A stretch of 64,000 nucleotides of DNA from Rhodamnia argentea (taxonomy: Eukaryota > Streptophyta > Magnoliopsida > Myrtales > Myrtaceae): positions 16,581,095-16,645,094 of the forward strand of contig NC_063160.1 in NCBI RefSeq assembly GCF_020921035.1, given 5' to 3'. Below are positions 4,154 through 58,509 of the stretch, piece after piece (the stretch's first letter is position 1; each line of letters starts with the position of its first letter). The notes under the pieces were generated by a model. That model saw only the letters and a list, made by a program, of their open reading frames with translations, ran no database searches and was not told the origin of the DNA. Position numbers and translations under genes: made by a program.

Positions 4154-4157
4154 AACA

Positions 4158-5142
4158 TGACCAAATCTTCAAGTTCATGAGGGATATTTCCGGAGAAGAT
4201 GTTCAAGCTCAAATCTAGATGAGTGAGACTCTTCAAATTACCTATTTCGGACTGGATACATCCAGTGAATTTGTTCTCTTCCATACTCAGATATGCCAAT
4301 TTTCTCAAGTTCCCTATTCCGGGAGGAATAGATCCATTGAAGGCATTTCCTTGCAAATAGAGATTAGTCAAGTTCCTCAAATTCGCGAGAGCCGGAGGGA
4401 TAGGGCCATCAAGGGAATTGAAGCTAAGATCTAGGTGAATCAGCTTCTTCAGATTTCCCAATTCATGAGGAATAGATCCATTGAAGGCATTTCCTTGCAA
4501 ATAGAGATTAGTCAAGTTCCTCAAATTCGCGAGAGCCGGAGGGATAGGGCCACCAAGGAAATTGAAGCTAAGATCTAGGTGAATAAGCTTCTTCAGATTT
4601 CCCAATTCACGAGGGATAGGACTAGTGATTTGATTATTATGAATGTCAACAACTTCTAGCAAGGTGAGGTTTTGTAGACAAAGAGGTAACTCACCGGTTA
4701 GGTAATTTTCCGACAAGTTGAGGTGCCTGAGCTTTGGGACTGCACATATTTGAAGGGGAATGATGCCGACGAGGAAATTATTAGGCACCTGAAGAGAGGC
4801 GAGATTCGGGAGCAGGGAGAAATTCATGCTGCTCAAATTACTTCTGAGCCAGCAGCCATAGCAGTTTCCCAGTGGTATGTTTATTTCAGCGACGCTACCA
4901 GAATGGTCGCACGAAATGCCGGGCCACGTGCAATGTGACGCGGAAGTGTTGCTCGTGATGGCATCAATCCACCATCCACTGCGACGAAGAGCGTCTGCCT
5001 CTGTTCCGGTGGCAATGGCAGGGTAGCTGTAGGAGAGAGCTAGCGCAATAAGGATCCATATCGCTGCGGTCATCGGCTTGCCAACATGCGAGCTGATGGG
5101 TCTGCTTACAGGATTCAAATGAATCATGTGGTATATCTTCAT
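4158..5142 (-). pseudogene. RLK1, 5' part of exon 1: signal peptide, first LRRNT and LRRs
   Basis: The ATG at 5142 corresponds to the RLK6 start at 42023. The product begins with a hydrophobic leader ([16 protein letters not shown]), then an LRRNT cap (CTWPGISC) and plant-type LRRs. Its own frame reads on into the LINE A-tail and stops at 4111, so only a soluble ectodomain fragment of about 330 residues could be made. Compared with RLK6 it has one extra 48-residue, two-LRR unit created by a 144-bp tandem duplication at 4325-4612. The CT-rich leader and upstream DNA match those of RLK6. Confidence 0.92.
4325..4612 (-). repeat. 144-bp tandem duplication of two LRRs in RLK1
   Basis: Units 4325-4468 and 4469-4612 are nearly identical. 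RLK6 has a single unit at this place, and the coordinate offset between the two genes changes by exactly 144 across it. Each unit codes for 48 residues, which is two 24-residue LRRs, so the frame is kept. The register suggests unequal crossing-over or slippage inside the LRR block. Confidence 0.93.
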
Positions 5143-5147
5143 GCTTT

Positions 5148-11399: not shown

Positions 11400-14300
11400 T
11401 CATGGTCCTTGCTCTTCTTGTAGGCTTGACGATGTTTCCGTGGTTCCACCTTCCCACCATATTCCTCGATTCATTTCTTGGAGCTGCGCAAGCGAGATTG
11501 AATGGAAGGGCTTGTCCAACGTTAGTTTTGGCGCTAGAAAAGCTTCCGAAACTTGTTTCATCGTGGGTCGCGACTTTGGGTCACCACTTAAGCAAGCAAG
11601 CGCCAGGGAAACTACCAGAATGATACTTCTTGCGATGGAATTCCCTCTTGGGATTGGCAAGCGTGGGTCTAATATTTGATGTAGCATAATATCTTCTCTG
11701 AAAAGTGTCGACAATATTAAGATCATCTCACCTGGATGCTCACCCATTATGATTTCCATTGCTACCGTTCCAAAGCTGTATACATCGCATTTCTCGTTGA
11801 TCACCAAAGTGTAAGCAAGCTCTGAGAAAAAGAAATAAAATGTTCGTAAATAGAGGAGGCTCGAAACTAAGTTCTCCACATTAGCTAGTACACTATCCGA
11901 TAAATTTGTAAAAATGATGAAGCATCAAAGTTGTTGCTTACCACGTGGGGAGTAAAGTATCTAGCTATGTGCCTCTACTAATAACATTCTAGATTGCTCA
12001 CCTGGTGCTATATATCCACGAGTGCCTGCGATATCTGCGGTGAGATTAGATGAGAAATTAGGTTCTAGGAGTTTTGCCGTGCCGAAATCCGATAAGAAAG
12101 CCTTCATGTTGTTGTTGAGCAAAATGTTGTTGCTAGATATGTCACGATGAACAATTGGCTGCGTGCAATCGTGGTGCAGGTAAGACAAGGCATGTGCAAT
12201 ATCCCAAACAATATTGAGTCTTTTAGACCAGTCTAATTCCACTGCTTCGACGTCATTTCTCAAAGCGCAAAATAGACTCCCCCTTTCCATATACTCATAA
12301 ACCAAGAACATGCATCGCTTGTGTAAGCAAAAACCATGGAGCTTAATTATGCTTCTGTGTCGTACTTCTGTCAAGTGTTTCACTTCATTTCGGAAGCTCT
12401 TGTCAAAAGATGGGTCCTCTGCTTCATGACGGTGAAGTTTCTTCAATGCCACGATCTTCCCATTGGGCAACCGCGCTCTATAGACACTACCGTATCCTCC
12501 AGTTCCAATGCAATATTTAATATCAAAGTCTTCTGTTGCATTGATTATGTCTTCATATGCCATTGTCCCATCGTAATTCCATATTGACAAGAAATCGCCA
12601 TTTTTTGTTGCTATCTCTGATCGCATGCACTTCGTTCTTCGTCGGAGTATTATCAAAGGCCCAAGAACTAATATAGCCACCAGTGGTATAAGTACCATCA
12701 TAAGTATAATCCTAGCCATTCTTTTGGGACCATCAGCCTTTTCCAAACCTTCATTATCGTTGAAAGCTCCATAATGAACATGGGCCAAATTATTTGGAAT
12801 TTTTCCCGTGAGACGATTGTGCGACAAGTTGACATAATCTAAGTGACCAAGAGTCGAAGGGATCGTGCCACGAAGTGCATTGAAACTAAGGTCTAGGTAG
12901 ATCAACCTCTTCAGATTTCCCAATTCGGGAGGGATAGGACTATCGAGCATATTAGTATGAATGTCAATGACTTCTAACATGGCGAGGTTTTGGAGACAAA
13001 GAGGTAAATCGCCAGTTAGGTGATTGTGGGACAAATTGAGGTGCCTGAGCTTTGGGAGCGCACATATTTGAAGGGGAATGATACCGGTGAGGTCGCTACT
13101 AGGCAGCCCAAGAAAGGCGAGATTCGAGAGGAGTGGCCAACTCATGCTACCCAAATTAGGGGTGATCCCGTGGTCATAACGTATTCGTTGCGGTATGTCT
13201 ATTCTGACGACGCTTCCAGAATCGTCACATGAAATGCCGAGCCACGTGCAATGTGATGATTTGGAGCTGCTGCTCATAGTAAAGTACTTGTAGGGCCACC
13301 AGCCACTGCCACGAAGAGCATCTGCATCTGCTTCCGTGGTAGTATATTCCAAAAATTCGTTGCCACGGAAATCTCTATAACCAACGTCGAGCAGATTATC
13401 TGGAATTCTTCCCGTGAGATGATTGTTCGACAAATCGATGTGACTTAAGAGGGAAAGCTTTTTTAAATTGGGAATTGAACCCTGTAGAGAATTATCCCGA
13501 AGATCGAGATAGCTTAACATGACCAAACTCCCAAGTTGAAGAGGGATTTCTCCAGAGAAGTTGTTATTGCTTAAATCTAGATAAGTGAGATTCTTGAAAT
13601 CTCCAATTTCCGATGGAATGGGGCCAGTGAAGGAGTTTGAGCCCAGGCTCAACCAAATCAATCTCTTCAAATTACCTATTTCTGACGGGATAGATCCGCC
13701 ATATTGGTTCTCTTCCATACATAGATATATCAAGTTTGTCAAGTTCCCAATTTCCGGGGGAATAGATCCATGGAAGGAGTTCCCTTGCAAATAGAGCTCC
13801 ATCAAGTCCTTCAATTCCCCCAGAGTTGGAAGTATAGGGCCATGAAGCAAATTGAAACTGAGATCTAGGTACCCTAGCTTCTTCTGATTTCCCAATCTAG
13901 AAGGGAAAGGACTAGCGATTCCATTATTATGAATGTCAAGAACTTCTAACATTGTGAGGTTTTGGAGACAAAGAGGAAACTCACCGGTCAAGTTATTGCC
14001 GGACAAGTCGAGGAACCGGAGCGGGAGTTCACATAGTTGACGAGGAATGATACCGGCGAGGCCATTATCAGACAGCCCAAGAAAGCTAAGATTCGGGAGC
14101 AGAGAGAAATTCATGCTGCTAAAATTCCCTCCGTCCCAAGAACCATTGCAGCTTCCTGCTAACATGTCTATTTCGACAACGCTTCCAGAATCATTGCAGG
14201 AAATGCCGGGCCACTCGCAATGCGACATAGACGTGTTGCTCGTAGCAGAGTGAGGCCACCACCCACTGCGAAGAAGAGCATCCACCTCTGCTCCGATGGC

Positions 14301-14435
14301 GAGGGCGGGGTAGCTGTGGGAGAGAGCTAGCGCGAAGAAGGATCCATGTAGGCTGCGGTCATCAGCCGGCGAACATGCAAGCCGACGGGATTGCTTACTG
14401 GATTCAAATGAGTCGTGCGGAACATCTTCTTGCTT

Positions 14436-14473
<38 letters not shown>

Positions 14474-14534
14474 CTCTTCTTTTGCTCTGGAAATGGAAGG
14501 TCCGAGTTTGCTGCAATATAGAAGAGCAATCCAA
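11400..14534 (-). CDS. RLK3: LRR receptor-like kinase with duplicated ectodomain; leader frameshifted
   Basis: Exon 1 is 14534-12002, the intron 12001-11822 (GT-AG) and exon 2 11821-11400. The join restores APE (GYIAPELAYTLV) in phase 1. Reading from 14534 gives 984 residues: LRRNT 1 near residues 85-118, LRRs to about 390, a second LRRNT near 400-440, more LRRs, TM near 625-650, then a kinase with [22 protein letters not shown] and DFG all intact, so it should be catalytically competent. The ATG matching the rest of the family is at 14425, but a 1-bp insertion near 14350 (GCAGCCTACATGG against GCAGCGACATGG in RLK6) puts that leader out of frame and ends it after about 32 residues. The 14534 start reads through the (CT)n tract and has no Met close to the hydrophobic leader. 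The gene may therefore lack proper secretion. A 13.6 kb retroelement sits just upstream. The kinase is probably real. Whether the protein is made is doubtful. Confidence 0.82.
14439..14471. repeat. (GA)n tract in the RLK3 leader
   Basis: About 16 GA units, CT on the gene strand, beginning 14 nt upstream of the family ATG (14425). In the 14534 frame it encodes SLSLSLSLS, which is unlikely to be real protein. Confidence 0.85.
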
Positions 14535-14626
14535 CGTTGGGCCCCGTGGTTTTAGTGCGGATCCAATTCACACTTGCAGCATTCCACGAACCGGACGCCG
14601 TCCCTCGCACCTAATGGACTCCACAT

Positions 14627-16079
14627 TGTTGACGCCTAAATTTTGATTAATCTATTTTTTGCATAAAAATTATAAAAAATCATCTCACATATTTATTTTT
14701 AGCGTACATTGCATTGGCATATAATCGGGCAAGCAGAACACTTAATTTAGCATGCGTCTAGACTAGGCACGGGATGGAAAAATACACCGAGAAGATTTGA
14801 AACTTCAAGGACTGTATTGCAAATACTTAAAATTTCGGGGACCTGTATTGCAAATACTTGGAACTTCGGGGACCGTATTGCAAATACCAAAAGAAGATGA
14901 AGAAGGGAAGATGATGAAGGGAAGATAATGAAAAGAAGATGAAGAAGGGAAGATGATGAAGGGAAGATAATGAAGGGAAGATGAAAATGGAAGGTGAAGA
15001 AATGAAGATGAAGAAGGGAAGATGAAAATGGAAGGTGAAGAAATGAAGATGAAGAAGAGAAGATGAAGATGGAAGGTGAAGAAATGAAGGTGAAGAATGA
15101 AGGATGAAGAACTTTGCCTATAAAAGAGAGAGCTCTTGAGAAGAGTTTTAGAAGGGGGGAAGTGGAAGAGAATTGAGAGAAAGTAGAAGAGAATTGAGAG
15201 AGTTTTTTTTAGGAAGAGTGGAAGAGAATTGAGAGAGTTTTGAGAGAGTTTTTGAGAGGAATTTTTAGAGAGGAAAAAGAGAGTTCTTGAGAAAAATCAG
15301 AAGAGAAAATTCGAGAGTGAAAAAAGAGTTTTAGTCGAGCATCATCTTCGACGAGTCCCGACACATATTTCGCCTCTCGCCACCCAACAACGCCATTGCT
15401 TGCCATTTTCGACGACAGCCGCGTTCTTCCAACTCCGAGATCTTGAAGGGAACTATAACGTGTATGTGAGTAAGATTTTGTGTAATAGAAGGTAATCATT
15501 TCCATCTCGATCTACAAAAATGTAATCGTTTGGTTTGAACATTTGTCCTGTTTATTTTAGACATGTCACGTGTTCCAAATTTTAGCATTATTACATGTTA
15601 ATTTATTTTTGTAAATACTCGTGATTGGCTGCGTTTTCTTTCTTTCTAAATCACCCATGGTGTATATTGTACAAAGTTCAATGTTTTACATCCCCATAAA
15701 AAAGAAGAAAAAAACCAAAAAAATTGCATCTTTGAATTTCAAGTAAAATCCATCAAAATTGCCAAATCAAATATTTTTCATGAAAATGGTACCGAAAGGG
15801 CGTTAGAGAAATCTGACGTAACCAAATCCCCGAATTCAAAATCTCCGGTTCGCGGAAATAAGATAGTTTTCTCCCGCTATTTTATTTAGGTTTCTAATCA
15901 ACCTACCGAAAATGATTAGTGGCGACTCCAAATTCAAATCACATTGCATGTTAATTATTTGAACTTTAAGTTGCGATTTGGTATGGACTTGGGAGAGTCC
16001 GAGTTAGGTTAGTTAATTAATTAACCCGATAATCCATTAGCCCGAAAATTAACTCGTCTATTTTTTTTAGGTCGCGTGA
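14627..16079 (+). repeat. 5' LTR of the Ty3/gypsy element
   Basis: Starts TGTTGACGCC. The end corresponds to GTCGCGACA in the 3' LTR but reads GTCGCGTGA here, so the terminal bases have mutated. A GA-rich repeat block fills 14886-15110 (GAAGATGAAGAAGGGAAGAT units). A TATAAAAG box at 15119-15126 follows it and should be the LTR promoter. Confidence 0.93.
15119..15126 (+). promoter_or_regulatory. LTR TATA box
   Basis: TATAAAAG lies directly after the purine-rich enhancer-like block, about 490 bp into the LTR. The 3' LTR has the same box at 27243-27250. That copy would fire outward, away from RLK3, into 28.2 kb and beyond. Confidence 0.6.
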
Positions 16080-16082
16080 CCT

Positions 16083-16100
16083 TGGCGACTCCGCTGGGGA
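16083..16100 (+). other. Primer-binding site of the Ty3/gypsy element
   Basis: TGGCGACTCCGCTGGGGA starts three bases after the 5' LTR. TGG pairs with the CCA end of a tRNA. The tRNA species needs an alignment to name. Confidence 0.65.
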
Positions 16101-17399
16101 CCCAAAGAGGACTTAGGCCGGATAATTTCATGAAAAAGGAATCACTTGATTTGGCAAACTTTGGTTGAATTCTCATTCTTAGGTGTTAAATGTTTTTGCA
16201 GATTGGGAGTTATAAGGGGAGGAGTGATCGGCTAACCCTTTGTTTTGCAGGCTTGGTGAATTGGAATTGTGATTTAACTTTTGAATCATTGAAGCGGTGT
16301 TTGCCTTTAATTGTTGTGCATGATTTATCGTCTTTGCACTACACTGCACACAACCCGTGACCGAACCTGGGTCACACTAATAGTTTTAAGATGGTATTTA
16401 GATGGTCCTCTAACCTTGGCGGTAAGGCTTCGCTAAAGGTTATCCCATCTGGATCCCGAAAATGTTTTCAAAAAAATGGCTCAAGGGTCGTTCTTATGCA
16501 CGTGAGGCTACGATGCATGAGAATTGCCCTTGTCGACCGAACCAAGCCGAAGTGATTGAACCCGACTAGTCATGACTATTGTACGCGAGGCTGCGACTAG
16601 TCATGATGACTGTGCGCGAGGCTGCGACATGTCGTTTCGTTCATCATTTCACTTTGCAAAAGCCTTTTGGATAGATAGAATAAGATTTAAACTCACAATT
16701 CATGCGCATGTCTTTGTGATTGGCATTTTCTTCATATGAGAGGTAATTTCTTGTACCATGTTATCTCATTTTTATTTTGAGCTGGTCCATGGTTTAGGAG
16801 TATCGTTGTCTTATTTCCAATTTCGCACTTTGCTTCCGTAGCTTTTACAATTTCATCGGTTGTCCTCAATTTTGATTTGGCTTATTCCTGTTGTGCGATT
16901 TTTACTAAATTCTACGATCGAGCTTTGAGTAAGTGCCAAACACGAAAGTTGTAGACCTATGTTTCAACTAATATCTTGCAAAATTTCAGAATTAAATTCA
17001 TAATTTAAGATGGCCCTTCGTTTTTTCAACAACATGCGGTTATAACAGTTTTCTGAACGTGATTTTTTTGGAAAGACACATTAAACTGATTTGATCCGTG
17101 CATTTCTAGTCCGATTGGCCAACATAAAAGTTGTTCATCATCTTCTCAACTACAAGCTCGTAAAATTTGGACATGTTTTGATCAACGTACGAATTAATAC
17201 GAATTTTTTTCAAAAGCGGACAAACTGAAAATTACATGTTTCAATCCTTTGGTCATAATCACTTTGTTCATTTGAGTCTAGAGGGATGCCATGGGCCGGC
17301 TCGCTATTCTATGCTCCCCTGTACTAATTTTGGGTTTGTTACGTGTACAGGTAATTTATCACGGATCCTCCACATATTACTCGATCGGTCGCAAAGAGG
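16101..17399 (+). other. Retroelement leader, no ORF
   Basis: Untranslated leader. Short direct repeats of a GACTAGTCATGA / CGCGAGGCTGCGA pattern occur at 16566-16630. Nothing else is recognised. Confidence 0.5.
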
Positions 17400-17735
17400 A
17401 TGGCCGACATTAACGATGCCGTTAGTGCTGCCCTAGACGAGAAACTTGGCTCCTTGATCGAGCGCTTTGAAGGGATGATGTCCCGAAAGATGAAAGAAAT
17501 GATGGCCGCCTTCACCGCCAAATTTCAATCATCCGCCGCCAGCCCGCCGCTTCCTGCTCTAGTTCCCCCTACGGACAACTTCGGTCACGGTCTTGGGAGA
17601 AGTTCAAGATGCCCGACTTCGAGAAGTATGATGGGACTTCCAACCCGGTTCAGCATGTCCGGAAGCTGTCACAAATGTCGATTCATGGTAACAAGATTAA
17701 TGTCCCTCCAAACGAGTTACATCGCTTATCCGAAC
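17400..17735 (+). pseudogene. gag N-terminal remnant
   Basis: An ATG at 17400 opens MADINDAVSAALDEKLGSLI, a helical, charged N-terminus typical of plant gypsy gag. A frame change leads to MPDFEKYDGTSNPVQHV (from 17609), the conserved start of the retrotransposon gag core. After about 30 residues this runs straight into integrase-type sequence, so several kilobases of gag, protease, RT and RNase H have been lost by an internal deletion near 17710-17740. Confidence 0.75.
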
Positions 17736-18620
17736 CATGGCCGTTTTCTATGTGGGGCATTGATGTTATCGGCCATATCAATCCTAAAGCATCCAATGGG
17801 CATCGATTCATCTTGGTAGCAATTGACTATTTCTCTAAATGAATCGAAGCCGCATCTTATTTAGCGGTCACTGACATGAAATATCGTGAAATTTATCCGT
17901 CGAGATATCATCGCTCGATATGGTTCACCCGAAGCCATAATCACTCGACAATGGCTCAAACTTGAACAACAAGCTAATGGACGAATTGTTCAAGGAATTC
18001 AAGATCAAGCATCCGAACTCTTCCCCATATCGTCCTCGGATGAATGGAGCAAGTAGAAGCCGCCAATAAGAACATCAAGAAAATCTTAGCGAAGACGGCT
18101 GAAAATTATCGCGATTGGCATGAGAGGTTGCCATTTGCACTTATGGCGTATCGGACCTCGATCCGGACATCTACGGGGGCAACCCCGTATTCTCTTGTAT
18201 ATGAAATGGAGGTCGTTCTACCGGTTGAAGTGGAAATTCCTTCCTTACGTATATCTTGTCTCAAGCTATCTTGACGGAAAGCTTGAATGGATCTAGCGGA
18301 GGGCGAGCCAATTGAATTTGATCGATGAAAAGAGACTTAAGGTTATATGTCATGGCCATTGTTATCAGCAGAGGGTTGCCAATTCATTCAACAAAAAAGT
18401 TCGGCCTCGATATTTTCGGATCAATGACCTGGTCTTGAGAAAATTATTGCCAATAGTCCCACTCCCGGAAGGGAAATTCGCTCCAAACTATGGTGGTCCA
18501 TATATAGTAAAGAAGGTGCTCCCTGGTGGTGCTTTGATTATGGCCGAGATGGATGGTCATGTCCTTACCAACTCGATCGGTTCGACTCCGTAAAGAAATA
18601 TTATACTTGATTCACTACGA
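17736..18620 (+). pseudogene. Integrase remnant (Tat/Ogre-like)
   Basis: Fragments in changing frames: WPFSMWGIDVIGHI with the first catalytic Asp, then FILVAIDYFSK (17800s), a degraded middle with stops, then EAANKNIKKILAKTAENYRD and WHERLPFALMAYRTSIRTS (18044-18274), then NKKVRPRYFRINDLVL and GGPYIVKKVLPGGALI (18312-18600). Stops at 17839 and around 17900-18040, plus frameshifts, rule out a functional integrase. Confidence 0.82.
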
Positions 18621-18949
18621 TGTTTTCATAATCGAGTTATAATATTAATCAGATTCACGAGTTGTTCACATTTGGGCATTCGTTTGTTTCCTCGCTACTA
18701 ATCTTTCTTTGAGAGATTGTTTCAAATGGGGGAGTCTCTCCGGCCCAATTGAATTGACCATCAGTAGCGTGAGATTTACATATTCACGAGTAAAGGGGTT
18801 ATCTTGCAAAAAAAGATATGACGACCAAGATGAAATGAGGAAAATGAAGAGCCCCTTCAATATTCAACGGCATATGGAAGATCGAATAATGCGAAAGCGA
18901 AATGCAAATGAGTAAAAACTTGCATTTATTTCATCCATCGGAGAGCCTT

Positions 18950-19690
18950 ACAAACAGATCATCGGGGTGGGAACGTAAAGCCAAACCGAGCCCTAATGAG
19001 CATCACAAAGGAGTTTAACTGACTCTCCATACGGTTGATGCTCCGCCTACACCGATCGCTTCGAGAATCGAGATCCGCCCGGCTTAAAGAGGAGGAGCTC
19101 ACATTTCTCTTTAAGCTTGGCCACCCTATCCTCGTGATACTCGGCAGCAGATTCCAAGTCATGGATCGACATTCTCCCGCGGGCTATATCCAGGGTCGGA
19201 TCGTCCAGCCTTTCTTCCAGCCATGAGCATTGAAATTTCAAAACAATATCGAGCGGATCGCGCTCGAAGATGGTCCGGGACATGGCCAAGCGTTCCACCA
19301 AGTTCCCCCTCTCACGAATCAGCAGTGAGACTTGATCATTACCGTAGTCAAGGGCCTTCTTATAATTGTCGGCTACAAGGCGGCCAACATCAAGTTATCC
19401 GGCCGATCCCGATAGCGTGCCCTCACAAGATAGGCCAAAGTAACATCTTGATAAGCATGATTGTAAGCCTCCGGGAAGTTAGTGAAGAGGGTAGGGAAGA
19501 TCCTATATTCCTCTTCTAACTTGGTACCTTGAATAGAAACGGTGTCCATATCCGTAAACATGAGACGGATTTCGGTTTCGACCTCCGGATGGTTGGCTAT
19601 ATAAGAGTAGCCATGGCCTAAGAGATTATAAAGTTTTTCCCATTTGGCCAAAACTTCAGCCGAGAAGATGCGTGCGGGGAGGGAGGCCAT
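18950..19690 (-). pseudogene. Antisense ORF inside the retroelement (function unknown)
   Basis: The minus strand opens at 19690 with MASLPARIFSAEVLAKWEKL and runs to 19373. A 1-bp change there shifts the reading to the frame that continues 19301-19047 (RGNLVERLAMSRTIFERDPL, then a charged helical stretch). Together this is about 210 residues, rich in Glu, Arg and Leu and probably partly coiled-coil. I recognise no domain. Extra antisense ORFs between integrase and the 3' LTR are known in Tat-type elements, so it may be an element gene. Capture from the host is the alternative. Confidence 0.5.
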
Positions 19691-20250
19691 TGTTGCTTTG
19701 AAGTTGCTTGAAAAAGAGTGGATGCGAAAGAGTGCTTAGAAGGTTGGAGATGAGGATATGGAAGCGATAATCGTCTCGGCGTTAAATCCTAATTTAAAGG
19801 GCAGAAAAAGTCATAGCAATAATTATTGTGGGGGCCGAGTTAATTATCTGGGTAAAACTACGGACGTTTCGTCCGTGAATCACGGATCTACCATCTCGAG
19901 GCTCACGAAATTCGAAAAGTTGCGAAATGACTTAAAGGTTCCGCCATATTAAAAGAGGGACAAGCATCTTATGAGAAAAGATTTGAGGGTCCCACCATGT
20001 TAGAAGGAAATGAAGAAGACATAGCGGGAAACACGAAATCTTGGGAGAAGCAACGGCTTAGTGGTTTTCATCCACGTTAAAAGGGAGGCTCCGGAACATG
20101 CATGTTTACTCGGAAGAATTTGGAGAGAGTAAGCATACGGCGGAGAGTAGAGTGAACAAAAGGCGGTAAGAAGTATTTCAATCCAACATGTTTGGAGGCT
20201 ACCAGCACTTACTCGGAGGCAACCAACCTAGACATCCCCGAGAATGAGCG

Positions 20251-20940
20251 ATGAATTTCGAGGCCGGATCCAGCCTTGAAGGCGTAAAACCCAACTCCCT
20301 TGGTGGTGAAGTTCAAGATCTCGATAACAGCAACAACAATAGCAAAGCGAGCAGCCGTAGTCAACCCCCGGAAAAGAAAACATCAAATCAAAGAGCTCAA
20401 GCTGCCTTTAAGGAGTGCCCTTACGTGAACGGGAAACGAAAAAATGAGTTGAGCCGGAAGCTAGGAATGGAGCCCTTGAAGGTCGGGTTTTGGTTTCAAA
20501 ACAAGCGGGCCCGAGTGAAGGTTCGAAGTGAAAGTCATGAACTTGCGTCTCTAAAGGAAGAAAATGAAGAGCTTCGACGAGAGATCAAGAGGTATAGGGA
20601 TGCTCTTAACATCGCTATTTGCCATGTCTGCAAAGCAACCCCATCACCTTTGGTGGCATGTTCCTTGATGAGCCACATCCGAGCATTGAAAATGCTCATT
20701 TATCGATTCATCCTCCCGAGCAAGTTCTCGCACAATCGGATTTCGTTGGGGATACATCCCGGAATGTCGGCCTTGCGGAGGCAGAACCGATGCCCTTCGA
20801 GGGAAGTGACATGCATCACTACAATTGGAGTTTCCACGATGTCACGGTCGGCCAATTCAACACCGATGAAACTCCGAATCGCCTAGCCTACATGAAACTT
20901 GAGTTTTTATTATGGGCTTTCAAAATATCACTCTTTTGAG
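20251..20940 (+). pseudogene. Captured HD-ZIP IV-like homeodomain and zipper segment
   Basis: An ORF of 211 codons starts MNFEAGSSLEG. After an Asn/Ser-rich acidic stretch comes a homeodomain-like block: FKECPYVNGKRKNELSRKLG, then EPLKVGFWFQNKRARVK, with the invariant recognition-helix W, F, N and R present. Next is a leucine/charged zipper (LKEENEELRREIKRYRDALN) and a CxxC motif (CHVC). In class IV HD-ZIP proteins the same order occurs: FKECP, WFQN, zipper with CxxC, then an IENARL-like segment. The latter appears here in the next frame (FLDEPHPSIENAHL, about 20660-20700), so a frameshift follows the CxxC. Helix 1 is 3-4 residues short. There is no START domain and no intron. I read it as a retro-captured, decaying transcription-factor fragment. 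Confidence 0.72.
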
Positions 20941-21164
20941 CATTACTAGCTAGCCCTTATGAATTCTCAAGAGAAGTAGAGACATGCGTGAATGAATGTA
21001 CTGTTTGTTACAAAGTCCCCATGTGAGACATTCTTCCTTTTACGCCTAGAGTTAATCAAGGGGCAAAAAACGATTACTATCCGCAAATATCATCATGCTT
21101 AAATGCGTGAATTCTTTATCGATTTGTTGAACGCCGAAAGGAAAAGCATTAAAAGCCTTCACAT

Positions 21165-21365
21165 AGATAGATGCAAAAAGATTTGAGAAAAAATAGCTGC
21201 CTCGTTATTAGAGAAAGCAAAAAGATTCGAGGAAATAAGCGCCTCGGGAGGAAGTGAAAAGATCTCGAGGAAGGAAGTAATCGCCTCGTTCGTAGGGGGA
21301 ACCGAAAAGATCTGAGGAAGGAAATAACCGCCTCGTTCATAGAGAAAGCGAAAAGATTTGAGGGC
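21165..21365 (+). repeat. About 50-60 bp tandem repeats within the retroelement
   Basis: Four diverged units containing GCCTCGTTCATAGAGAAAG and AAAAGATTTGAGG. They code for nothing recognisable and separate the two captured segments. Confidence 0.6.
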
Positions 21366-21714
21366 TCCTACATATCGGAAAAGGAAAAAGATGACAGATT
21401 GAGTGAGAGGCAAGAGTTATTACGAAATGGATCCAAGGCACTAAGACCGGAAAGGAGAGAAAAAGTTGTCCTCTTTCGTAGAAAAAGCAAGAACCTATAT
21501 GCGAGACTAACAGATCAGAAAAAGTTTATAAATGACCACCGGAACTCGTCACGAAAGACCACCATCGCTTTTGTGATTTTCGGGCAGATTGTTTTGCAAG
21601 TCCGAGAACATCTAAAGCTCGGTCTCTGGTCGAAACAGCCATTTTTGATCTACATATGGAAGGTTTTAAAAGAAAAACACGTTCATTCCGGGCGGAAGTA
21701 TGGGAACCTTCCTA

Positions 21715-22665
21715 TCCTGAAGATCTGCGAGTCATGGTCATTGATGGCAACCCCGTTTCCCTCTCAATCCTCGTTGCTATCTTTGAGAAGTTGCATGTAC
21801 GGGGTTTTTGCTAATGCGAAAGCAACGGATGCCTTACAAGTACTGAGGCGGTACAAATATGATTTTGACATCGTCGTCACAGGCCGTCGTAGGGATCGAC
21901 ATGGACGGTTTCGAGTCTCTTAAAGATCATTGATTCCGAGTTGGACATACGGGTCATCGTAGTATCAGCAAGTAATGATCGCAGTTCATAACGAGGGCCA
22001 TATCGCATGGTGCTCGAGACGTCCTGCGAAGCCGGTGCAACGTTCAAGTGCTCCAAAACATTTGGCAGCATGCTGTAAGGAAGCAATTACTTGTACAAAA
22101 AAACCACGACCAAGGCGACGACGACGATTTTGTCCAAAAGAAAAGGCCCCTTTGGTCCGCCAAGCTTCATTCTATATTCATTGAGGCAGTTCAACAGCTT
22201 AGGAATCAATTCAAGACGACCACCGGCTGTACACAAAATGATGAATATAGACGGACTCACCATGCAAAGTGTCACAAATCACCTTCAAAGGGTTAGAGAT
22301 AAGGCGAGGAGGCACGATGCAACTTGGGACCAAGGCGACCGGACCCGAGTTGATTGGAAGATCAATTTCGGGAAAACCTACCGAGCAAAAGGTACCCGAC
22401 CACTTCCCAATCAAGAATACGAGTCATACCAACCTTCCGCTGGTGGTTCTAGTAGCGGACAGTTGATCATCCCTACAAGTTCCCGAGCAACGACGGAGGC
22501 TCAAGCTTAAGGAGTCGGACTGCTCACAACAATCTGTCACCGGTGTTAGCAAGTAACAATGCCCAATTCGAGTATCAATTGCTCGAAAAATCGGAAGATT
22601 ACTTTGATGATGAGCTTGCTACCTTGATGAGCATGTTTGGAAATGAAGGACCTCCAGAGCCGTGA
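21715..22665 (+). pseudogene. Captured type-B response regulator-like segment (receiver + GARP domain)
   Basis: Pieces in three frames follow the order of a type-B ARR protein. The receiver start is LRVMVIDGNPVSLSILVAIF (about 21727). Then come ATDALQVLRRYKYDFDIVVT, IDMDGFESLK (21893-21923) and DSELDIRVIVVSASND, then LQNIWQHAVRKQ (22048-22083), equal to the end of the receiver. The GARP/Myb-like DNA-binding domain follows: KKRPLWSAKLHSIFIEAVQQ, a 1-bp shift near 22200, then MMNIDGLTMQSVTNHLQRVR (22231-22290). A run to the stop at 22663-22665 is acidic (SEDYFDDELATLMSMFGNEG). The phospho-acceptor Asp region has decayed. The usual receiver and GARP introns are absent, which argues for capture of a spliced mRNA. 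Confidence 0.72.
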
Positions 22666-25600
22666 TCCGAAGCAAGTTATTATGGGTCTTCAAACAACGA
22701 TTGTTGGTGTTTAGTCCAAGACAGAATCAGTTGATCGTTGAAGTGGCCAGCAAGAGAGGTGGAACCAATCTCGCATGAATACTCCTTTAACTCCATGTAT
22801 AGTTCCTCTACCTGGGATATTTTTTTTACTCTCTAACTGTCTAGAATTTGCCTAGAGTTAAAGGACGAATTTTCTCCTCTCTTGTCAAAATGCGTAAGTT
22901 CCTTACTAAGCTAGGCCCGTAGCAAATCAATTTGTGGACGACGCCCCTGAACGCCCGTAAAGAGAGATTCGAATAGCCTTACTTGGGAGAATACGAGTAA
23001 AAGGCCAGACGGGCTCAAAGATGGGTAACTCCGTATCGTCCCAATTGGCTCTCAGTTATTTCAAACTCTAAATTATGCTTATTTTATTCTCAACAGGGGA
23101 TTGCCAACTGTTTTGAGAACAATATAGCAAAAAGCGAACCAACCGTGGACGCCAACATCACCACGACCTGGTGGTTGGGGGAATGATGGTGGTCCGAGGC
23201 GTCCCGGGTTCGATCCCGGGATTTGGCATCAATGTACAAAGATTAATAAAAACCTTTTTGCTTCGCGATTCAATGCCGATTGAAGCTCGGCCCTAGATGG
23301 TTACAAAACTTGAAGAGATAACATCCCGGACATACAACCCGATCCAGATGAGCCGATCTTTTCAAATTCAAAGTTCACAAGGAATACGTGCAAGGGTAAA
23401 GCGGTATCGTTTCAACTCGTTTAGGACATAAGAACGTACATTGATGCTTTCCCTTTTGATTTTTACAGGGGTCACTGCCTTTCCAGATAGGGAAGTATCC
23501 ATTCTCCCGGAAAAATTAATGAAATAAAAAATTCCTGGAGCCTTTGACAATCTCATGTCTCGAACCGGATAATGAAGTTTTGCAACTCATTTGCATGAGC
23601 AGGGGCAACTCCCAATCCACACCCCTAAGAAGTTTCTTATGTGCTTGTGAATTCTGTCCACCAAGATAAAAAGTTGCTGCATTTTATATGCTAAAAAACA
23701 CTCATACATTGCATAGTTTATGCATGACTGTTCCTCATGTTTAATTTACCAACTCTGAATAAGGAACATGAACTACATAAGATACATCGAATGTATGGAA
23801 TGGGGCAGGGCAGGATGATGAAAGGCAATCCTTTCCCAAACACGTCCCATTTTTTCGGGAGAGTTGAACGATGGCTAAATTCCGCATTCCCCGAGATAAA
23901 GAGTTTTCTCGTGAAAGATACGATAGCCGAAATGACAGAGGCATTCAGTTCTCTATCCCAAACACTACGGGTGATCCATTGATTACCCCTTTTGAGCGGT
24001 GGTTTCATTTCTTTACCCCTGTCAAGAACCACCCTACATCGGGGTTCGGACGGGTTAATTCCAGCAGCAACACGAGGTAAATGGTTAGAAATTTTCTTGC
24101 TCGGACTAACATTAATTTTCGGGTGTTTCTTTGCATTTATACTCGAATTTTAATTCAAGTGCCTTAGGATGATGAAGAGCATTCATTTCTCTATCATATA
24201 CACTTCATTCTTTGCATAGCCCACTTGAGCCCGCAAATTCATTTCTTAAACCCCCGTTGGTGATCATTTGCTCATTCCAAAGACGAAGATAGCATTTTCC
24301 CAAGGATTAGAATTGGAGATGGTCGGGTCAACAGAGAATTCCCGAATGGACTCATTTCTTGTATGCTAGATTTTTTATGTTTACATAATTTTTCTTTGTA
24401 CATGTTTATGCTTGTTGTAATTCCTGGTTCAAAATCATGAGATTGTAAAAAAAGGAGAGGCAAACTCAACTTAAAAAAGAAGGGCCCGCTCTCGAAAAAA
24501 AAAAAAGCAAAATAGAGAGACGTCGAAGAGCTCTCAAAGAAAAAGAAAAAAAATCTCTTCTAAAAAAAAAGAAGAGAAAAAAAAATGAGAGTCGGGAGTA
24601 AGAAAAGCAAAGGCTGATCTCATATGAAAATTTCGAGCATAGGAAAAGCAAAGTGCCTACCAAAAGTAAGGCCAATGCACATTCATTTGTAAAGTACTTC
24701 TGAATTTTGAATGTATATTTTTGCATGTTAAGTTGTAAATTCCATGTACATGTTTGCATTGTGTCTCTTGCAAATCCTTGTGAGACACTTGTTATGAAGA
24801 AGACTCCCCAAGAAATCGGTTTGTAAAGTGCAATTTTCGGTAGAAAACTACCATCCCTCATTCAATGATGGTATTCTTTCTCAAGACATTTCCGGAAGAC
24901 CAAGATCGGTGACTAGTCGGCGATGATCACCAACGTCAAGCCCCTTCTCATTTAATTTCTGAGCCAAAACGAGCCTTTTCGTTCCTCGAGTCCCCAATCC
25001 TAGCCTACGTTATAACCCTCCAAAGTCTCTTCGATTAGGGCATTTGAGTTAACGTAGAGTTAAATGATTTTAAGCATCACTCGAAGAAGTTCGAGCAAGA
25101 TTATTTCTCTCTCATTTTTGCGGGATTCTTGACTTGTAAATCCGGAGCAAATGATGAAGAAATTCATTTCAAAGCAACCTTGACTCAACCGGAGTCCCCT
25201 TTGTAAACCTTTGACCTAGCTCTCATTACGGTCCTAATCAAGACCTCCCGGATCGACTCGGTCGTATCAATTGCGAGATTACTTGGATCCTTATCGAATG
25301 CGATGATGGAAAGATTGAGTGATTTCTCTTGAATCCCGCAGACGGGATAAATAGCTTTTCTCGAGAGTGAGAGAAAGCCCTTTCGGATTGAAGTCCCCCA
25401 TTCAGCTCACATTCGAGGTATTCGTAATGTGAGAACCTCCCTGGACAAAATTGGTAATGCAAACTTGACGGAATGGTTATGCATGAACCATAGTATGAGT
25501 GATTGCATTATACTCATTGTTGAATATGTTTGTGTGTGTTACCCTTGACATTCTATGATAGGTAATACATTCCCGATGTTCGAGTTCCCTCCCAAGGTCT

Positions 25601-25860
25601 CGAAATTCATCCAAGGATTATTGAATGAGCAAGTTTTGCTGGCAATGCCTACCAGGTACGATACTGCAACCGCTTCGTTCCTTGATTAATCGTTTGGAGA
25701 ACCCGGGTAAGTTTTCCGAACCCCTTTTCAAATTAACAACTCTTCTCATGATAGTTGTTATGATTCAATTCAGGCAATATGCCCATTTTGTACTTATCGA
25801 TTCCATTCGATGGTGCTCCTATCAAATATTGTTCAATTCGGGCAATATGCCTCTTCCGTC
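22666..25860 (+). other. Retroelement 3' internal region, no gene recognised
   Basis: About 3.2 kb of non-coding text. It includes a tRNA-like piece at 23165-23230 and A/G-rich low-complexity DNA at 24460-24660. Short ORFs are scattered on both strands with no motif I can place. Confidence 0.5.
23165..23230 (+). other. tRNA-like / SINE-head sequence
   Basis: A perfect T-arm-like hairpin with loop, TCCCGGGTTCGATCCCGGGA, follows a GGTGGTTGGGGGAATGATGG block that could be an A-box region. Too few bases remain for D and anticodon arms with a paired acceptor, so I take it as a tRNA-derived fragment and not a tRNA gene. Confidence 0.35.
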
Positions 25861-25861
25861 A

Positions 25862-26400
25862 AGTCGTGTAGACATATGCACTGGCGATCTTGACATCTTA
25901 TCAAATCATAACGACGTAGCTCTTATGGTTTCAATCTCGGGACGTGAAGACATATGCACCGGCGATCTTGACATCTTATCAAATCATAACGACGTAGCTC
26001 TTATGGTTTCAATCTCGGGACGTGAAGACATATGCCATTGGCGATCTTGACATCTCTTCAAATCATAACGGCGTAGCTCTTATGATTTCAGTATCGAATC
26101 ACGAAGACGTATGCACCGGTGATCTTGACCTTTAGTCGGCTCATAATGACATAGCTCTTATGATTTTCGGCTCCTTTATCAAATCATGAAGACATAAGCA
26201 CCCATATTTTTTATCCAAACCAAATCATAACGACGTAGCTCTTATGATTTTGGTTCCCCTTTATCGAATCGTGAAGACATATGCACCGGCGATTTCGACA
26301 TTTAATCAACTCACAACGACGTAGCTCTTGTGAACTTGATCCCACTTCTTTCGACTCACAACGACGTAGCTCTTGTGATCTCAAACGACACACATATCTT
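25862..26400 (+). repeat. 78-80 bp tandem repeat near the 3' end of the retroelement
   Basis: Units share GAAGACATATGCACCGGCGA, TCTTGACATCTTATCAAATC and ATAACGACGTAGCTCTTATG. The first two full units are almost identical (78 bp, 26 codons). Four or five later units are diverged or shortened. Such satellite-like arrays near the 3' end are known in Tat/Ogre elements. Confidence 0.85.
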
Positions 26401-26738
26401 GCGCTGTCTTGCATTAGGGAGAAGTCTCGATAATGAGATAGGCCAAATACCTTAAAATCCTTGCATCCGCAAAAAGAAGCTTGGAAATTAAGAGAACCAT
26501 TAGCTTACGAGAAATTTGGTAAAACATGTATTCTTGTATGCGATCCATGTGCAAGTTTCTCTAACATGAAAAAGGGAAATTATGACACGTGTTATTTACA
26601 GTCGTGCATATCATGCATCACTTCATTACATAAAAAATGGGATTAAAACTCCCGCCAAAAAGTTCATCCATAATTTGCACTTGTCAAAATTTAGGATTCA
26701 ATTTTGTCTTTGAGCGGAACCTCTACGAGCCTCCACTC

Positions 26739-26750
26739 AAAGAGGGGCAA
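26739..26750 (+). other. Polypurine tract of the Ty3/gypsy element
   Basis: AAAGAGGGGCAA ends exactly at the 3' LTR start (26751), the expected place for plus-strand priming. Confidence 0.8.
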
Positions 26751-28202
26751 TGTTGACGCCTAAATTTTGATTAATCTATTTTTTGCATAAAAATTATAAA
26801 AAATCATCTCACATATTTATTTTTAGCGTACATTGCATTGGCATATAATCGGGCAAGCGGAACACTTAATTTAGCATGCGTCTAGACTAGGCACGGGATG
26901 GAAAAATACACCGAGAAGATTTGAAACTTCAAGGACTGTATTGCAAATACTTAAAATTTCGGGGACCGTATTGCAAATACTTGGAACTTCGGGGACTTGT
27001 ATTGCAAATACCAAAAGAAGATGAAGAAGGGAAGATGATGAAGGGAAGATAATGAAAAGAAGATGAAGAAGGGAAGATGATGAAGGGAAGATAATGAAGG
27101 GAAGATGAAAATGGAAGGTGAAGAAATGAAGATGAAGAAGGGAAGATGAAAATGGAAGGTGAAGAAATGAAGATGAAGAAGAGAAGATGAAGATGGAAGG
27201 TGAAGAAATGAAGGTGAAGAATGAAGGATGAAGAACTTTGCCTATAAAAGAGAGAGCTCTTGAGAAGAGTTTTAGAAGGGGGGAAGTGGAAGAGAATTGA
27301 GAGAAAGTAGAAGAGAATTGAGAGAGTTTTTTTTAGGAAGAGTGGAAGAGAATTGAGAGAGTTTTGAGAGAGTTTTTGAGAGGAATTTTTAGAGAGGAAA
27401 AAGAGAGTTCTTGAGAAAAATCAGAAGAGAAAATTCGAGAGTGAAAAAAAGAGTTTTAGTCGAGCATCATCTTCGACGAGTCCCGACACATATTTCGCCT
27501 CTCGCCACCCAACAACGCCATTGCTTGCCATTTTCGACGACAGCCGCGTTCTTCCAACTCCGAGATCTTGAAGGGAACTATAACGTGTATGTGAGTAAGA
27601 TTTTGTGTAATAGAAGGTAATCATTTCCATCTCGATCTACAAAAATGTAATCGTTTGGTTTGAACATTTGTCTGTTTATTTTAGACATGTCACGTGTTCC
27701 AAATTTTAGCATTATTACATGTTAATTTATTTTTGTAAATACTCGTGATTGGCTGCGTTTTCTTTCTTTCTAAATCACCCATGGTGTATATTGTACAAAG
27801 TTCAATGTTTTACATCCCCATAAAAAAGAAGAAAAAACCAAAAAAATTGCATCTTTGAATTTCAAGTAAAATCCATCAAAATTGCCAAATCAAATATTTT
27901 TCATGAAAATGGTACCGAAAGGGCGTTAGAGAAATCTGACGTAACCAAATCCCCGAATTCAAAATCTCTGGTTCGCGGAAATAAGATAGTTTTCTCCCGC
28001 TATTTTATTTAGGTTTCTAATCAACCTACCGAAAATGATTAGTGGCGACTCCAAATTCAAATCACATTGCATGTTAATTATTTGAACTTTAAGTTGCGAT
28101 TTGGTATGGACTTGGGAGAGTCCGAGTTAGGTTAGTTAATTAATTAACCTGATAATCCATTAGCCCGAAAATTAACTCGTCTATTTTTTTTAGGTCGCGA
28201 CA
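26751..28202 (+). repeat. 3' LTR of the Ty3/gypsy element
   Basis: 1452 bp, TGTTGACGCC to GCGACA, followed by the target duplication CACAT. Same internal plan as the 5' LTR: GA-rich repeats 27010-27230, TATAAAAG at 27243-27250. Confidence 0.95.
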
Positions 28203-28207
28203 CACAT

Positions 28208-33408: not shown

Positions 33409-34517
33409 GAACTTGGTTTTTGATTCTTGAGTACGAATAGATCTTTGCCTATCTTTCTTCTGAGCAATAATGGACATTTGTCTGGTCGATGGAGAGAATA
33501 GAACTGCATGGACGCAAGCCAAGAGTAGATAGTATGCGACCGAGCATTGCCGTCCTAACACTGATGGTCGCCCAAGGCAAATCTTACTCAGAAATGTCCA
33601 TTTGGAGATCGCACGGAAGTAGCTAGTGAGCTTTCATTAGATTTACTTAGAAATATTCATTTGCACGGTCAACGCAAAGTAAGCTATAATCTAAATAGCG
33701 AGGGGCACGCTATTCAGGTAGTCTATTATATCCTGAAAGACAGTCGCAATCCACCTTCTGCCTGCACTTTATGAAGAGCGGAATCAACATTTGAGAACCC
33801 TACTTACACACACTATGCAATTTCTATTTGTGATTGTCGAGAAATTTTTTTCACGACAAAATCGACGAACATCGCGCAAGTATCGTTCTTGAGAATAATC
33901 CTCCCGATAATGTGTGCACCGCATCTACTAGTATATAGCAAGAACAACAGGGAAGTGTGAAATCAACGGAAAGTGAGAAGAGAGGAGTATTACTAATTAA
34001 ACCGAATTCATAAATGTCCTACATGCATATATCCTCGTGTTTCTACGTCTAGTTAAATGTTTTGTTAATTCAAGGAATTTGTCTCATCGAAATACAGGAC
34101 ATATTTATGAGCCATTTTAAGAGTAAGAGTAACACAGTATTGGTCATGTAACAAGCTTATACAGAGACAAGCCTCGTGATCATTTCATTAAAGGAGAAAT
34201 GAGAAAAATAGGAAAAACATATTCATCTCCTTCTTTTCCTTGGGTTGTGAGTATTTTCACCTTCAAATTATCTTATCGATGTGAACAAAGTACCCCTGGG
34301 CAATACAATATATATTTTCCCATCTCCACAAGAAACTAGAATTGCAGGCAGGCAATCGGAGTGAGAATTAACAAGTTTTGCTTTAGGCCTTCACGATTAT
34401 TGGAAGTCATCCACATCTGCAGAACTAGCAGATTTGCGCAAACTATCATTGTAGAGTCTCGTTCGAGCCAGTTGCCAAGGAGAAAACGGAAACATCGTCG
34501 TGTCTCTCTTCCATGTT
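33409..34517. other. Upstream DNA of RLK5, no gene seen
   Basis: AT-rich, without the (GA)n leader that marks the other units. No module copy with a good TTGAC core is obvious. No coding potential. Confidence 0.4.
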
Positions 34518-42023: not shown

Positions 42024-42028
42024 GCTTT

Positions 42029-58502: not shown

Positions 58503-58509
58503 GATGCTC

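What the first reader, a model, noticed from the sequence alone, without database searches (positions are those of the whole stretch)
21715..22665. Type-B response regulator-like cargo (receiver + GARP) in the same retroelement
Seen: frame-broken pieces in receiver order (VMVIDGNPVSLSIL, IDMDGFESLK, IRVIVVSASND, LQNIWQHAVRKQ), then a GARP block (RPLWSAKLHSIFIEAVQQ, MMNIDGLTMQSVTNHLQRVR) and an acidic tail, all in sense and without introns. Two different transcription-factor types side by side in one element would be an unusual double capture, and might once have encoded an element regulator.
Basis: partly seen in the sequence, partly recalled or inferred. Interest (0 to 1): 0.85.

Follow-up and report, generated by a model that had tools for sequence, protein, structure and literature searches.

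The report
Retrotransposon carrying two plant gene regulators
The stretch is the damaged remains of a plant gene switch (a relative of the cytokinin-response regulators) that a jumping element carries beside a second, unrelated gene switch, and many other copies of this element in the same genome carry the same pair, some with the genes still unbroken.

Summary
Window 21656-22665 aligns to Arabidopsis ARR1 with four frameshifts and no stop in the receiver (53 of 120 identical) and one frameshift in the GARP domain (26 of 64), far above shuffles. It lies in a young 13.6-kb LTR retrotransposon (14627-28202; LTR K2P 0.0028) beside an HD-ZIP IV-like ORF.

The same genome holds many (40 scored of 387 candidates). 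Some keep the receiver-GARP ORF (up to 375 aa) or the HD-ZIP ORF (237 aa) open; copy L021/L040 has both, plus RT, two RNases H and integrase of Tat type. The window copy has lost the RT part. The ORFs travel together in fixed order (71 of 111 HD-ZIP places tested) and share a 3' module. The receiver lacks its phospho-acceptor Asp (0 of 32 readable of 43 loci).

Against a working regulator: within the recent family frameshifts in the ARR ORF spread as freely as in noncoding DNA, replacements look near-neutral, and canonical sites are not enriched in the LTR. Best reading: a Tat-clade retroelement group with two host-derived, intronless transcription-factor ORFs, probably functional in its history, decaying here.

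The parts
14622..14626 (.). target-site repeat CACAT, left
   Evidence: sequence
14627..16076 (+). 5' LTR (TGTTGACG...); its last few bases differ from the 3' LTR's end
   Evidence: 99.3% identical to the 3' LTR over 1455 aligned columns; 1446 aligned sites, 4 transitions, 0 transversions, 5 gap columns, K2P 0.0028
16083..16101 (+). primer binding site TGGCGACTCCGCTGGGGAC; complementarity to tRNA-Arg is recalled, not computed
   Evidence: sequence
17400..17585 (+). start of gag (by position and by eye), cut short by the internal deletion that joins it to integrase
   Evidence: 9 of 12 other copies carry further sequence here, with pol domains in the two tested
17649..18600 (+). integrase remnant (PWPFSMWGIDVIG...), stop and frameshifts
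   Evidence: the corresponding ORFs of L040 and L048 hit rve PF00665, E 1.6e-11 and 1.1e-11
19047..19735 (-). antisense ORF, broken once here; 257 aa open in 4 of 12 other copies; no Pfam family over its cut-off
20248..20900 (+). HD-ZIP IV-like ORF (homeodomain plus zipper, no START domain), frame-broken
   Evidence: Homeodomain PF00046 E=8.6e-11; PDF2 chain 9lpe E=1.2e-20
20907..21190 (+). 3' module behind the HD-ZIP ORF, homologous to the one behind the ARR ORF
21230..21363 (+). short tandem repeats with GAAAAGATTTGAGGG; one more exact copy of this word at 19975 upstream of the HD-ZIP ORF
21656..22665 (+). type-B ARR-derived ORF (the finding), frame-broken in this copy
21725..22086 (+). receiver domain part
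   Evidence: PF00072 E=4e-13 in the open copy L021
22120..22312 (+). GARP (Myb-like) DNA-binding part
   Evidence: PF00249 over its cut-off in L068, below it in L019, L021 and L067
22540..22665 (+). acidic C-terminal tail (YFDDELATLMSMFGNEGPPEP), resembling the HD-ZIP ORF's end
22677..22960 (+). 3' module behind the ARR ORF
25865..26166 (+). 78-bp tandem array before the 3' LTR
26740..26750 (+). polypurine tract AAGAGGGGCAA
26751..28202 (+). 3' LTR
28203..28207 (.). target-site repeat CACAT, right

Best explanation
The block is a decayed copy of an ORF that belongs to a Tat-clade Ty3/gypsy retrotransposon group. SHOWN: the group carries, in sense between pol and the 3' LTR, two intronless ORFs derived from plant transcription factors, an HD-ZIP IV-like one and, about 0.7-1.1 kb downstream, a type-B ARR-derived one (receiver, GARP, acidic tail); both are open in some copies and in more than one subfamily; the two share a homologous 3' module; the receiver lacks the phospho-acceptor Asp in every readable copy; the window copy is a recent, internally deleted insertion. 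INDICATED: its ARR frame was partly broken before it inserted. INFERRED: the ORFs came from host mRNA (no introns, sense), one cassette arose by duplication and exchange of its DNA-binding half, and in active members the proteins are nuclear DNA-binding factors that work without the His-Asp phosphorelay to raise transcription of the element, or to tune host genes in its favour, in dividing, cytokinin-responsive or epidermal tissue. Because such factors act in trans, copies with broken ORFs can still be amplified, which is what the recent family shows.
For: Alignment to ARR1 far above shuffles. 40 copies scored of 387 candidates, 39 over the whole query and one from base 4, on all 11 large contigs (contig lengths). 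ARR frame open from start to tail in L019 (375 aa) and L021 (341 aa), 2 of 30 copies read, and open over 334, 349 and 353 aa in L067, L068, L069 of other subfamilies, 79-83% identical to L021. Pfam in L068: Response_reg 6.5e-14 and Myb 1.1e-5, both over cut-off, Homeodomain 5.2e-17. Fixed order HD-ZIP then ARR: 71 of 111 places, reversed in 0 of 111. L040, the upstream piece of the L021 copy: RT in one ORF, RNase H, a second RNase H (RVT_3), integrase zinc finger and rve in the next. Host ARR-B genes are split over exons. Receiver against 4 host ARR-B genes: pN 0.37-0.43, pS 0.72-0.94, third-position excess, e.g. 0.46/0.37/0.71 for L053-L021. Asp site: 29 Ala, 2 Thr, 1 Pro, 0 Asp among 32 readable of 43 loci. 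Shared 3' module: L056 score 103 against maximum 47, L068 73 against 48, in 500 shuffles each. LTR K2P 0.0028, while 4 of 7 indels of the ARR block in this copy are shared with other copies.
Against: No expression, binding or protein data. Between subfamilies with open frames the replacement fraction does not differ from neutral simulation in 9 of 10 pairs (P 0.13-0.59; one pair P 0.03); these frames were chosen because they are open, so the lack of stops (P 0.01-0.26) is biased. Fixed differences between groups over the whole ORF give true-frame ratios (0.56, 0.47, 0.71) that are not clearly apart from the wrong-frame ones (0.43-1.00). In 29 copies, frameshifts per substitution in the ARR ORF (23 to 88 private; 9 to 45 when shared by 5 or more) are not lower than in noncoding DNA (26 to 125; 9 to 79); for the HD-ZIP ORF the private ratio is not lower either (23 to 75), the widely shared one is (2 to 28). 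No enrichment of AGATHY or L1-box sites in the LTR (6 seen, 8.6 expected; 0 seen, 0.1 expected). No host gene is a close source (34-41% identity), so the time of capture and how much constraint acted inside the element are unknown. The structure model failed (mean pLDDT 33).
Confidence: 0.6

Rival explanations
1. Passenger reading: two host mRNAs were captured long ago, never gave the element a benefit, and the ORFs drift; open frames survive only because the family keeps renewing itself from a few source copies.
For: Window copy broken; 28 of 30 copies read do not have the ARR frame open from start to tail; frameshifts shared among copies at noncoding rates; near-neutral replacement pattern; no target sites enriched in the LTR.
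Against: Both ORFs, in the same order, are kept across subfamilies down to about 66% protein identity; L065, at 56%, also has an HD-ZIP hit 0.95 kb upstream. At the measured 0.26 private frameshifts per substitution (23 to 88), the 112 substitutions between the open frames of L021 and L068 would be expected to bring tens of frameshifts; choosing open copies cannot remove those on shared branches. Homeodomain and response-regulator profiles remain strong.
Confidence: 0.32
2. Retrogene insertion: the ORFs are processed host retrogenes inserted into an element by LINE activity and then amplified with it, rather than template-switch capture during reverse transcription.
For: Intronless, sense cassettes with their own 3' flanks; what looks by eye like a non-LTR RT ORF lies in the same window (1692-4124).
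Against: The two cassettes share one 3' module, which two independent retrogene insertions would not give. Poly(A) remnants and target-site repeats round the cassettes were not searched for.
Confidence: 0.15
3. The similarity to ARR-B is a chance mosaic of short pieces in an unrelated retroelement sequence.
For: The frame is broken in the window copy and no Pfam hit of the ARR block passes its cut-off there.
Against: Shuffle test, match of the single open frame of L021 to ARR1 with E = 1.1e-43, Pfam cut-offs passed in L068.
Confidence: 0.01

Closest known systems
Phalaenopsis Ty3/gypsy elements with an AlkB-type m6A demethylase ORF (PMC9289625; abstract, section 12 and passages seen)
   Same: Large elements placed within Tat, with tRNA-Arg primer site and dual RNase H, that carry a host-type extra ORF in dozens of family consensuses
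   Different: There one RNA demethylase, tested in vitro; here two DNA-binding transcription-factor ORFs, untested. What I saw of that screen of 121 angiosperm genomes names B3, ArgoL2, PMD, G-patch and others; the main text has no 'homeo', 'Myb' or 'response reg'; its supplement was not seen
Retand/Ogre lineages of the Tat clade (PMC11963269, abstract and sections 11 part 1 and 12 seen; PMC6317226, passages seen)
   Same: aRH between RH and INT, long pol-3' LTR region, antisense ORF, tandem repeats, defective yet recently active members
   Different: PMC11963269 reports no sense ORF with a known domain in that region and Transposase_28 antisense ORFs in 97% of clusters; here two sense transcription-factor ORFs, and the antisense ORF has no Pfam match over its cut-off
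Maize Bs1 and other LTR elements with transduced host genes (PMC13317346, passages; PMC7264820, first of three parts)
   Same: Several host gene segments in one LTR element
   Different: Bs1 carries ATPase, xylan endohydrolase and glucanase segments; PMC7264820 says transduced ORFs are present in one or a few copies, here they are in many copies and several subfamilies
Plant type-B response regulators (ARR1, PDB 8xat/9h6e)
   Same: Receiver followed by GARP domain
   Different: Phospho-acceptor Asp lost, short protein of about 335 aa, element-borne, intronless
HD-ZIP IV factors (PDF2, PDB 9lpe)
   Same: Homeodomain plus zipper, E = 1.8e-28 for L068
   Different: No START domain found; a tail of about 70 aa instead

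Membership tests
Tat clade of Ty3/gypsy LTR retrotransposons | second RNase H (aRH); between RH and INT in Ogre and Retand (PMC6317226, passages) | tested here: met
   L040: RT_RNaseH 21-125, RVT_3 174-290, Integrase_H2C2 386-438, rve 457-554 in one ORF; shown in this one copy. Absent from the window copy by internal deletion
Tat clade of Ty3/gypsy LTR retrotransposons | LTRs, 5-bp target-site repeat, primer site, polypurine tract | tested here: met
   the tRNA-Arg assignment of the primer site is recalled
Retand lineage | antisense ORF with Transposase_28 (PF04195), 97% of clusters in PMC11963269 | tested here: not met
   antisense ORF present but no PF04195 hit; therefore not filed as Retand
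Ogre lineage | RT phylogeny; extra ORF upstream of gag | not tested
   no reference RT set at hand; the 5' end of one pol-bearing copy was fetched and used for its LTR only
type-B response regulators | receiver then GARP domain | tested here: met
type-B response regulators | phospho-acceptor Asp in the receiver | tested here: not met
   0 of 32 readable of 43 loci; so 'ARR-B-derived pseudo-receiver', not a member proper
HD-ZIP IV | homeodomain and adjoining zipper | tested here: met
HD-ZIP IV | START domain | tested here: not met
   no START hit at E up to 0.1 in the frames of L018 and L068
host gene transduction by an LTR element | intronless, sense, between element parts, host homologue with introns | tested here: met
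   for the ARR cargo
host gene transduction by an LTR element | identifiable donor gene | tested here: not met
   34-41% identity to each of 4 host ARR-B genes, pS 0.72-0.94; HD-ZIP donor not tested
element-encoded transcriptional regulator | binding to and activation of the element's own LTR | not testable with these tools
   only site counts could be made, and they were negative

The most novel reading that the evidence does not exclude
A long-lived plant retrotransposon clade encodes its own pair of host-derived transcription factors: a phosphorelay-independent ARR-B-type GARP factor and a START-less HD-ZIP IV factor, built as two cassettes with a common 3' module and similar acidic ends. 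They switch the element on, or bend cytokinin and epidermal programmes, in tissue that leads to the germ line, much as some retroviruses carry trans-activators.
Probability: 0.3. Interest if true: 0.92.

Novelty: new variant of a known kind. Interest (0 to 1): 0.74.

Why it matters
Captured host genes in plant LTR elements are usually described as few-copy fragments (PMC7264820). Here two DNA-binding regulator genes, of the cytokinin-response and HD-ZIP IV types, are a standing part of a many-copy element group and still open in some copies. That makes the old question of whether plant retrotransposons carry their own transcriptional regulators directly testable by binding and expression assays. 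It also warns that gene-family counts of ARR-B and HD-ZIP genes in such genomes may include element ORFs. A screen of 121 plant genomes found a cytokinin-pathway domain (YgdH/LONELY GUY) in Citrus elements (PMC9289625, section 12), so a link between element cargo and cytokinin control is worth testing.

Tried and rejected
Chance mosaic: rejected by shuffles.

Viral and prokaryote collections: no relatives of the HD-ZIP ORF or the antisense ORF in viral contigs, nor of the gag-integrase ORF in genome contigs.

Empty site from the tandem LRR-kinase copies: flanks joined in a script matched only in part to 58513-58586 and 58669-58821, no clean empty site.

L030 first looked like a divergent copy with another gene in place of the HD-ZIP; it is an inverted LTR of the same family joined at 21118. 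It was dropped from the counts; include it.

Self-binding through canonical motifs: no enrichment in LTR or leader; the HD-ARR spacer has 7 AGATHY against 4.5 expected (P 0.16). The motifs (AGATHY, TAAATGYA) are recalled.

Homology of the 5' flanks of the two cassettes: weak only (score 53, 0 of 1000 shuffles; in four other copies 52-62 against shuffle maxima of 50-64, two of four above their maximum; in L056, L062 and L068 too little flank was held and scores of 20-21 are noise). Not claimed beyond the shared GAAAAGATTTGAGGG word.

Structure prediction: unusable, pLDDT 33; no fold search made.

L062 was read in one frame past a frameshift; its rows there are not used.

Full report
Observation. 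A three-frame, frameshift-aware alignment of 21600-22700 with the ARR1 receiver (120 aligned positions, 53 identical, 4 frameshifts, no stop, score 217) and GARP domain (64 positions, 26 identical, 1 frameshift, score 125) stands far above 60 dinucleotide shuffles each (maxima 40 and 37). Unjoined single-frame pieces also find ARR1 first among the PDB chains (E = 5.1e-10; 4e-4), though no Pfam cut-off is passed by them. The neighbouring ORF at 20248-20886 has a homeodomain (8.6e-11) and matches the HD-ZIP IV factor PDF2 (1.2e-20).

The element. LTRs at 14627-16076 and 26751-28202 are 99.3% identical, with K2P 0.0028 over 1446 sites, about 0.1-0.35 million years at recalled rates of 1.3e-8 to 4e-9. 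They are bounded by CACAT and enclose a primer site, a polypurine tract, a gag start joined to a broken Tat-type integrase, an antisense ORF, the HD-ZIP block, the ARR block and a tandem array. The window is part of a 347-Mb genome with 11 large contigs. That it is a plant is read from the gene content, and 11 chromosomes would fit Myrtaceae; both are inference.

Copies. A DNA search with 21640-22700 scored 40 copies (91-100% identity, the window's own included; 39 over the whole query, one from base 4) out of 387 candidates. The HD-ZIP block gave 40 scored of 282 candidates. A search with ARR1 protein gave 239 matches; outside the host ARR-B genes most listed rows are one-piece receiver matches at 35-47% identity, some with a stop inside, many without and in open frames of 300-400 aa. 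A search with the HD-ZIP ORF of L068 gave 150 scored places of 658 candidates. Of 111 HD-ZIP places compared, 71 have an ARR hit 727-1107 bp downstream on the same strand and 0 have one upstream. In loci of other subfamilies, 7 of 8 (L056-L063; not L057) and L068 carry the HD-ZIP ORF upstream of the ARR ORF.

Open frames. Of the 30 copies read, L019 (375 aa) and L021 (341 aa) have the ARR frame open from start to tail, and L018, L021 and L033 have a 237-aa HD-ZIP frame. L067, L068 and L069, from other subfamilies, are open over 334, 349 and 353 aa. In these frames Pfam reports Response_reg (4e-13 in L021, 6.5e-14 in L068), Myb_DNA-binding (over its cut-off in L068, just below it in L019, L021 and L067) and Homeodomain (1.2e-15 in L018, 5.2e-17 in L068). 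L021 matches ARR1 with E = 1.1e-43. So the window copy is a damaged copy of ORFs that exist intact elsewhere.

Pol. Pieces upstream of 12 other copies were fetched. In 9 of 12 the stretch upstream of window position 17649 is not the window's gag start; in 2 of 12 (L043, L044) the junction resembles the window's; in L050 about 1.3 kb lies between. Pfam was run on two of the nine: L040 has RT, RNase H, a second RNase H, integrase, a G-patch and a weak protease-like hit; L048 has gag, RT, RNase H and integrase. L040 belongs to the same copy as L021, whose HD-ZIP and ARR frames are open. A second RNase H between RH and INT is the mark of the angiosperm Tat lineages Ogre and Retand (PMC6317226, passages). 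The antisense ORF is open over 257 aa in 4 of 12 (L040, L046, L047, L050) but has no Transposase_28 hit. The LTRs of one pol-bearing copy (L048) are 98.6% identical over 1102 columns and 95.6% over another 435.

Two cassettes, one 3' module. The 3' flanks of the HD-ZIP and ARR ORFs are similar in the window (score 43, 0 of 1000 shuffles reach it) and more so in several other subfamilies (L056 69 against a maximum of 37, L062 58 against 40, L068 57 against 44; L019 39 against 40 and L059 38 against 37 are at noise level; 11 loci tested). In L056 the similarity runs from the last codons through the 3' flank (score 103 against a maximum of 47 in 500 shuffles; L068 73 against 48). The protein ends look alike (SFLDDELIVTVGEF of the HD-ZIP ORF in L056, YFDDELATLMSLF of the ARR ORF in L021), but with the coding tail alone the score is 44 against 39 in L056 and 28 against 36 in L068, that is, weak. 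The shared module is most simply explained by duplication of one cassette and exchange of its DNA-binding half; that is inference.

The receiver. Where the motif can be read (32 of 43 loci), the residue at the phospho-acceptor place is Ala in 29, Thr in 2, Pro in 1 and Asp in none; the copies are related, so these are not independent. One acidic-pocket Asp is Gly in most; the KP motif is often kept. In the window copy a frameshift falls at the same place. If the protein works, it works without phosphorylation of this site.

Selection. Among 29 copies of the window's family, variants shared by 4 or more copies give a normalised N/S ratio of 0.55 in the true frame against 1.15 and 1.03 in the wrong frames for ARR, and 0.86 against 1.40 and 0.65 for HD-ZIP: at best weak constraint. 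Frameshift indels per substitution in the ARR ORF are not lower than in the noncoding flank, private (23 to 88 against 26 to 125) or widely shared (9 to 45 against 9 to 79); in the HD-ZIP ORF the widely shared ones are fewer (2 to 28). In the window copy 4 of 7 ARR indels are shared with other copies, although chance recurrence in base runs is possible. Between open frames, within and between subfamilies, dN/dS is 0.37-0.69 by NG86, but the replacement fraction is within neutral simulation in 9 of 10 pairs. Fixed differences between groups do not clearly separate true from wrong frames. Against four host ARR-B genes, synonymous sites are near saturation while replacement sites are not (pS 0.72-0.94, pN 0.37-0.43), with a clear third-position excess. 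Long constraint thus acted on this lineage, but how much of it inside the element cannot be told.

Origin. The host ARR-B genes are split over exons; the cargo is continuous. None of the four host genes compared is close (34-41% identity). Capture from mRNA is inferred; the donor and date are open.

Mechanism. My reading is that active members express two DNA-binding proteins from the 3' half of the element, that these act in trans, and that defective copies such as this one are carried along by intact ones. The simplest test for self-regulation, canonical sites in the LTR, is negative: AGATHY 6 seen and 8.6 expected, L1 box 0 seen and 0.1 expected.

Literature. In the listings (open-licence PMC only; top rows, for example 20 of 1,971) I saw no title or abstract start that describes an LTR retrotransposon with an ARR-B or HD-ZIP ORF. 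[quoted passage not shown] PMC9289625 (abstract, section 12, passages) lists other extra domains in 121 genomes, among them B3 and the cytokinin-linked YgdH; its supplement was not available. PMC13317346 (passages) and PMC7264820 (part 1 of 3) describe known captures. In PMC3726574 a word search found no transcription factor, homeobox or response regulator. Absence from these searches is not proof of novelty.

Verdict. Presence, order and co-travel are shown; capture route and function are open.

Noticed in passing
window 4111-5145, 11961-14567, 31213-33633, 39603-42026, 56435-58508 (- strand): Tandem array of LRR receptor-like kinase genes and fragments (read by eye); the retroelement sits just upstream of one of them.
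   Followed up: no
window 47415-51321 (+): By eye a nearly complete Ty1/copia-like element: gag with zinc knuckle, integrase, RT and RNase H ORFs, broken in places.
   Followed up: no
window 1474-4124 (+): By eye a non-LTR retrotransposon reverse transcriptase ORF (810 aa piece) next to an LRR gene fragment.
   Followed up: no
window 23150-23235 (+): tRNA-like stretch with a GGTTCGATCC box-B-like motif in a short stem, perhaps a SINE remnant inside the element; ARAGORN calls no tRNA gene in the window.
   Followed up: partly
L030 3084-4061: Inverted LTR of the same family joined at window-equivalent 21118: perhaps one copy inserted head-on into another.
   Followed up: partly
L040 6738-8501 (-): G-patch domain (3.6e-7) behind a weak protease-like hit in the polyprotein region of a pol-bearing copy.
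   Followed up: no
window 19047-19735 (-): Antisense ORF (257 aa when open in other copies) without a Pfam family over cut-off; a weak SlyX hit only (E 0.047).
   Followed up: partly
window 14893-15111 and 27017-27235: GAAGATGAAG-type repeat array inside both LTRs.
   Followed up: no
G000:C6:15447562 with C6:15448996, and C3:11343179 with C3:11344562: Copies whose HD-ZIP is 95-96% identical to the window's while their ARR ORF is not among the 40 listed DNA matches of 387 candidates: possible recombination between subfamilies, or only the cut-off of the list.
   Followed up: no
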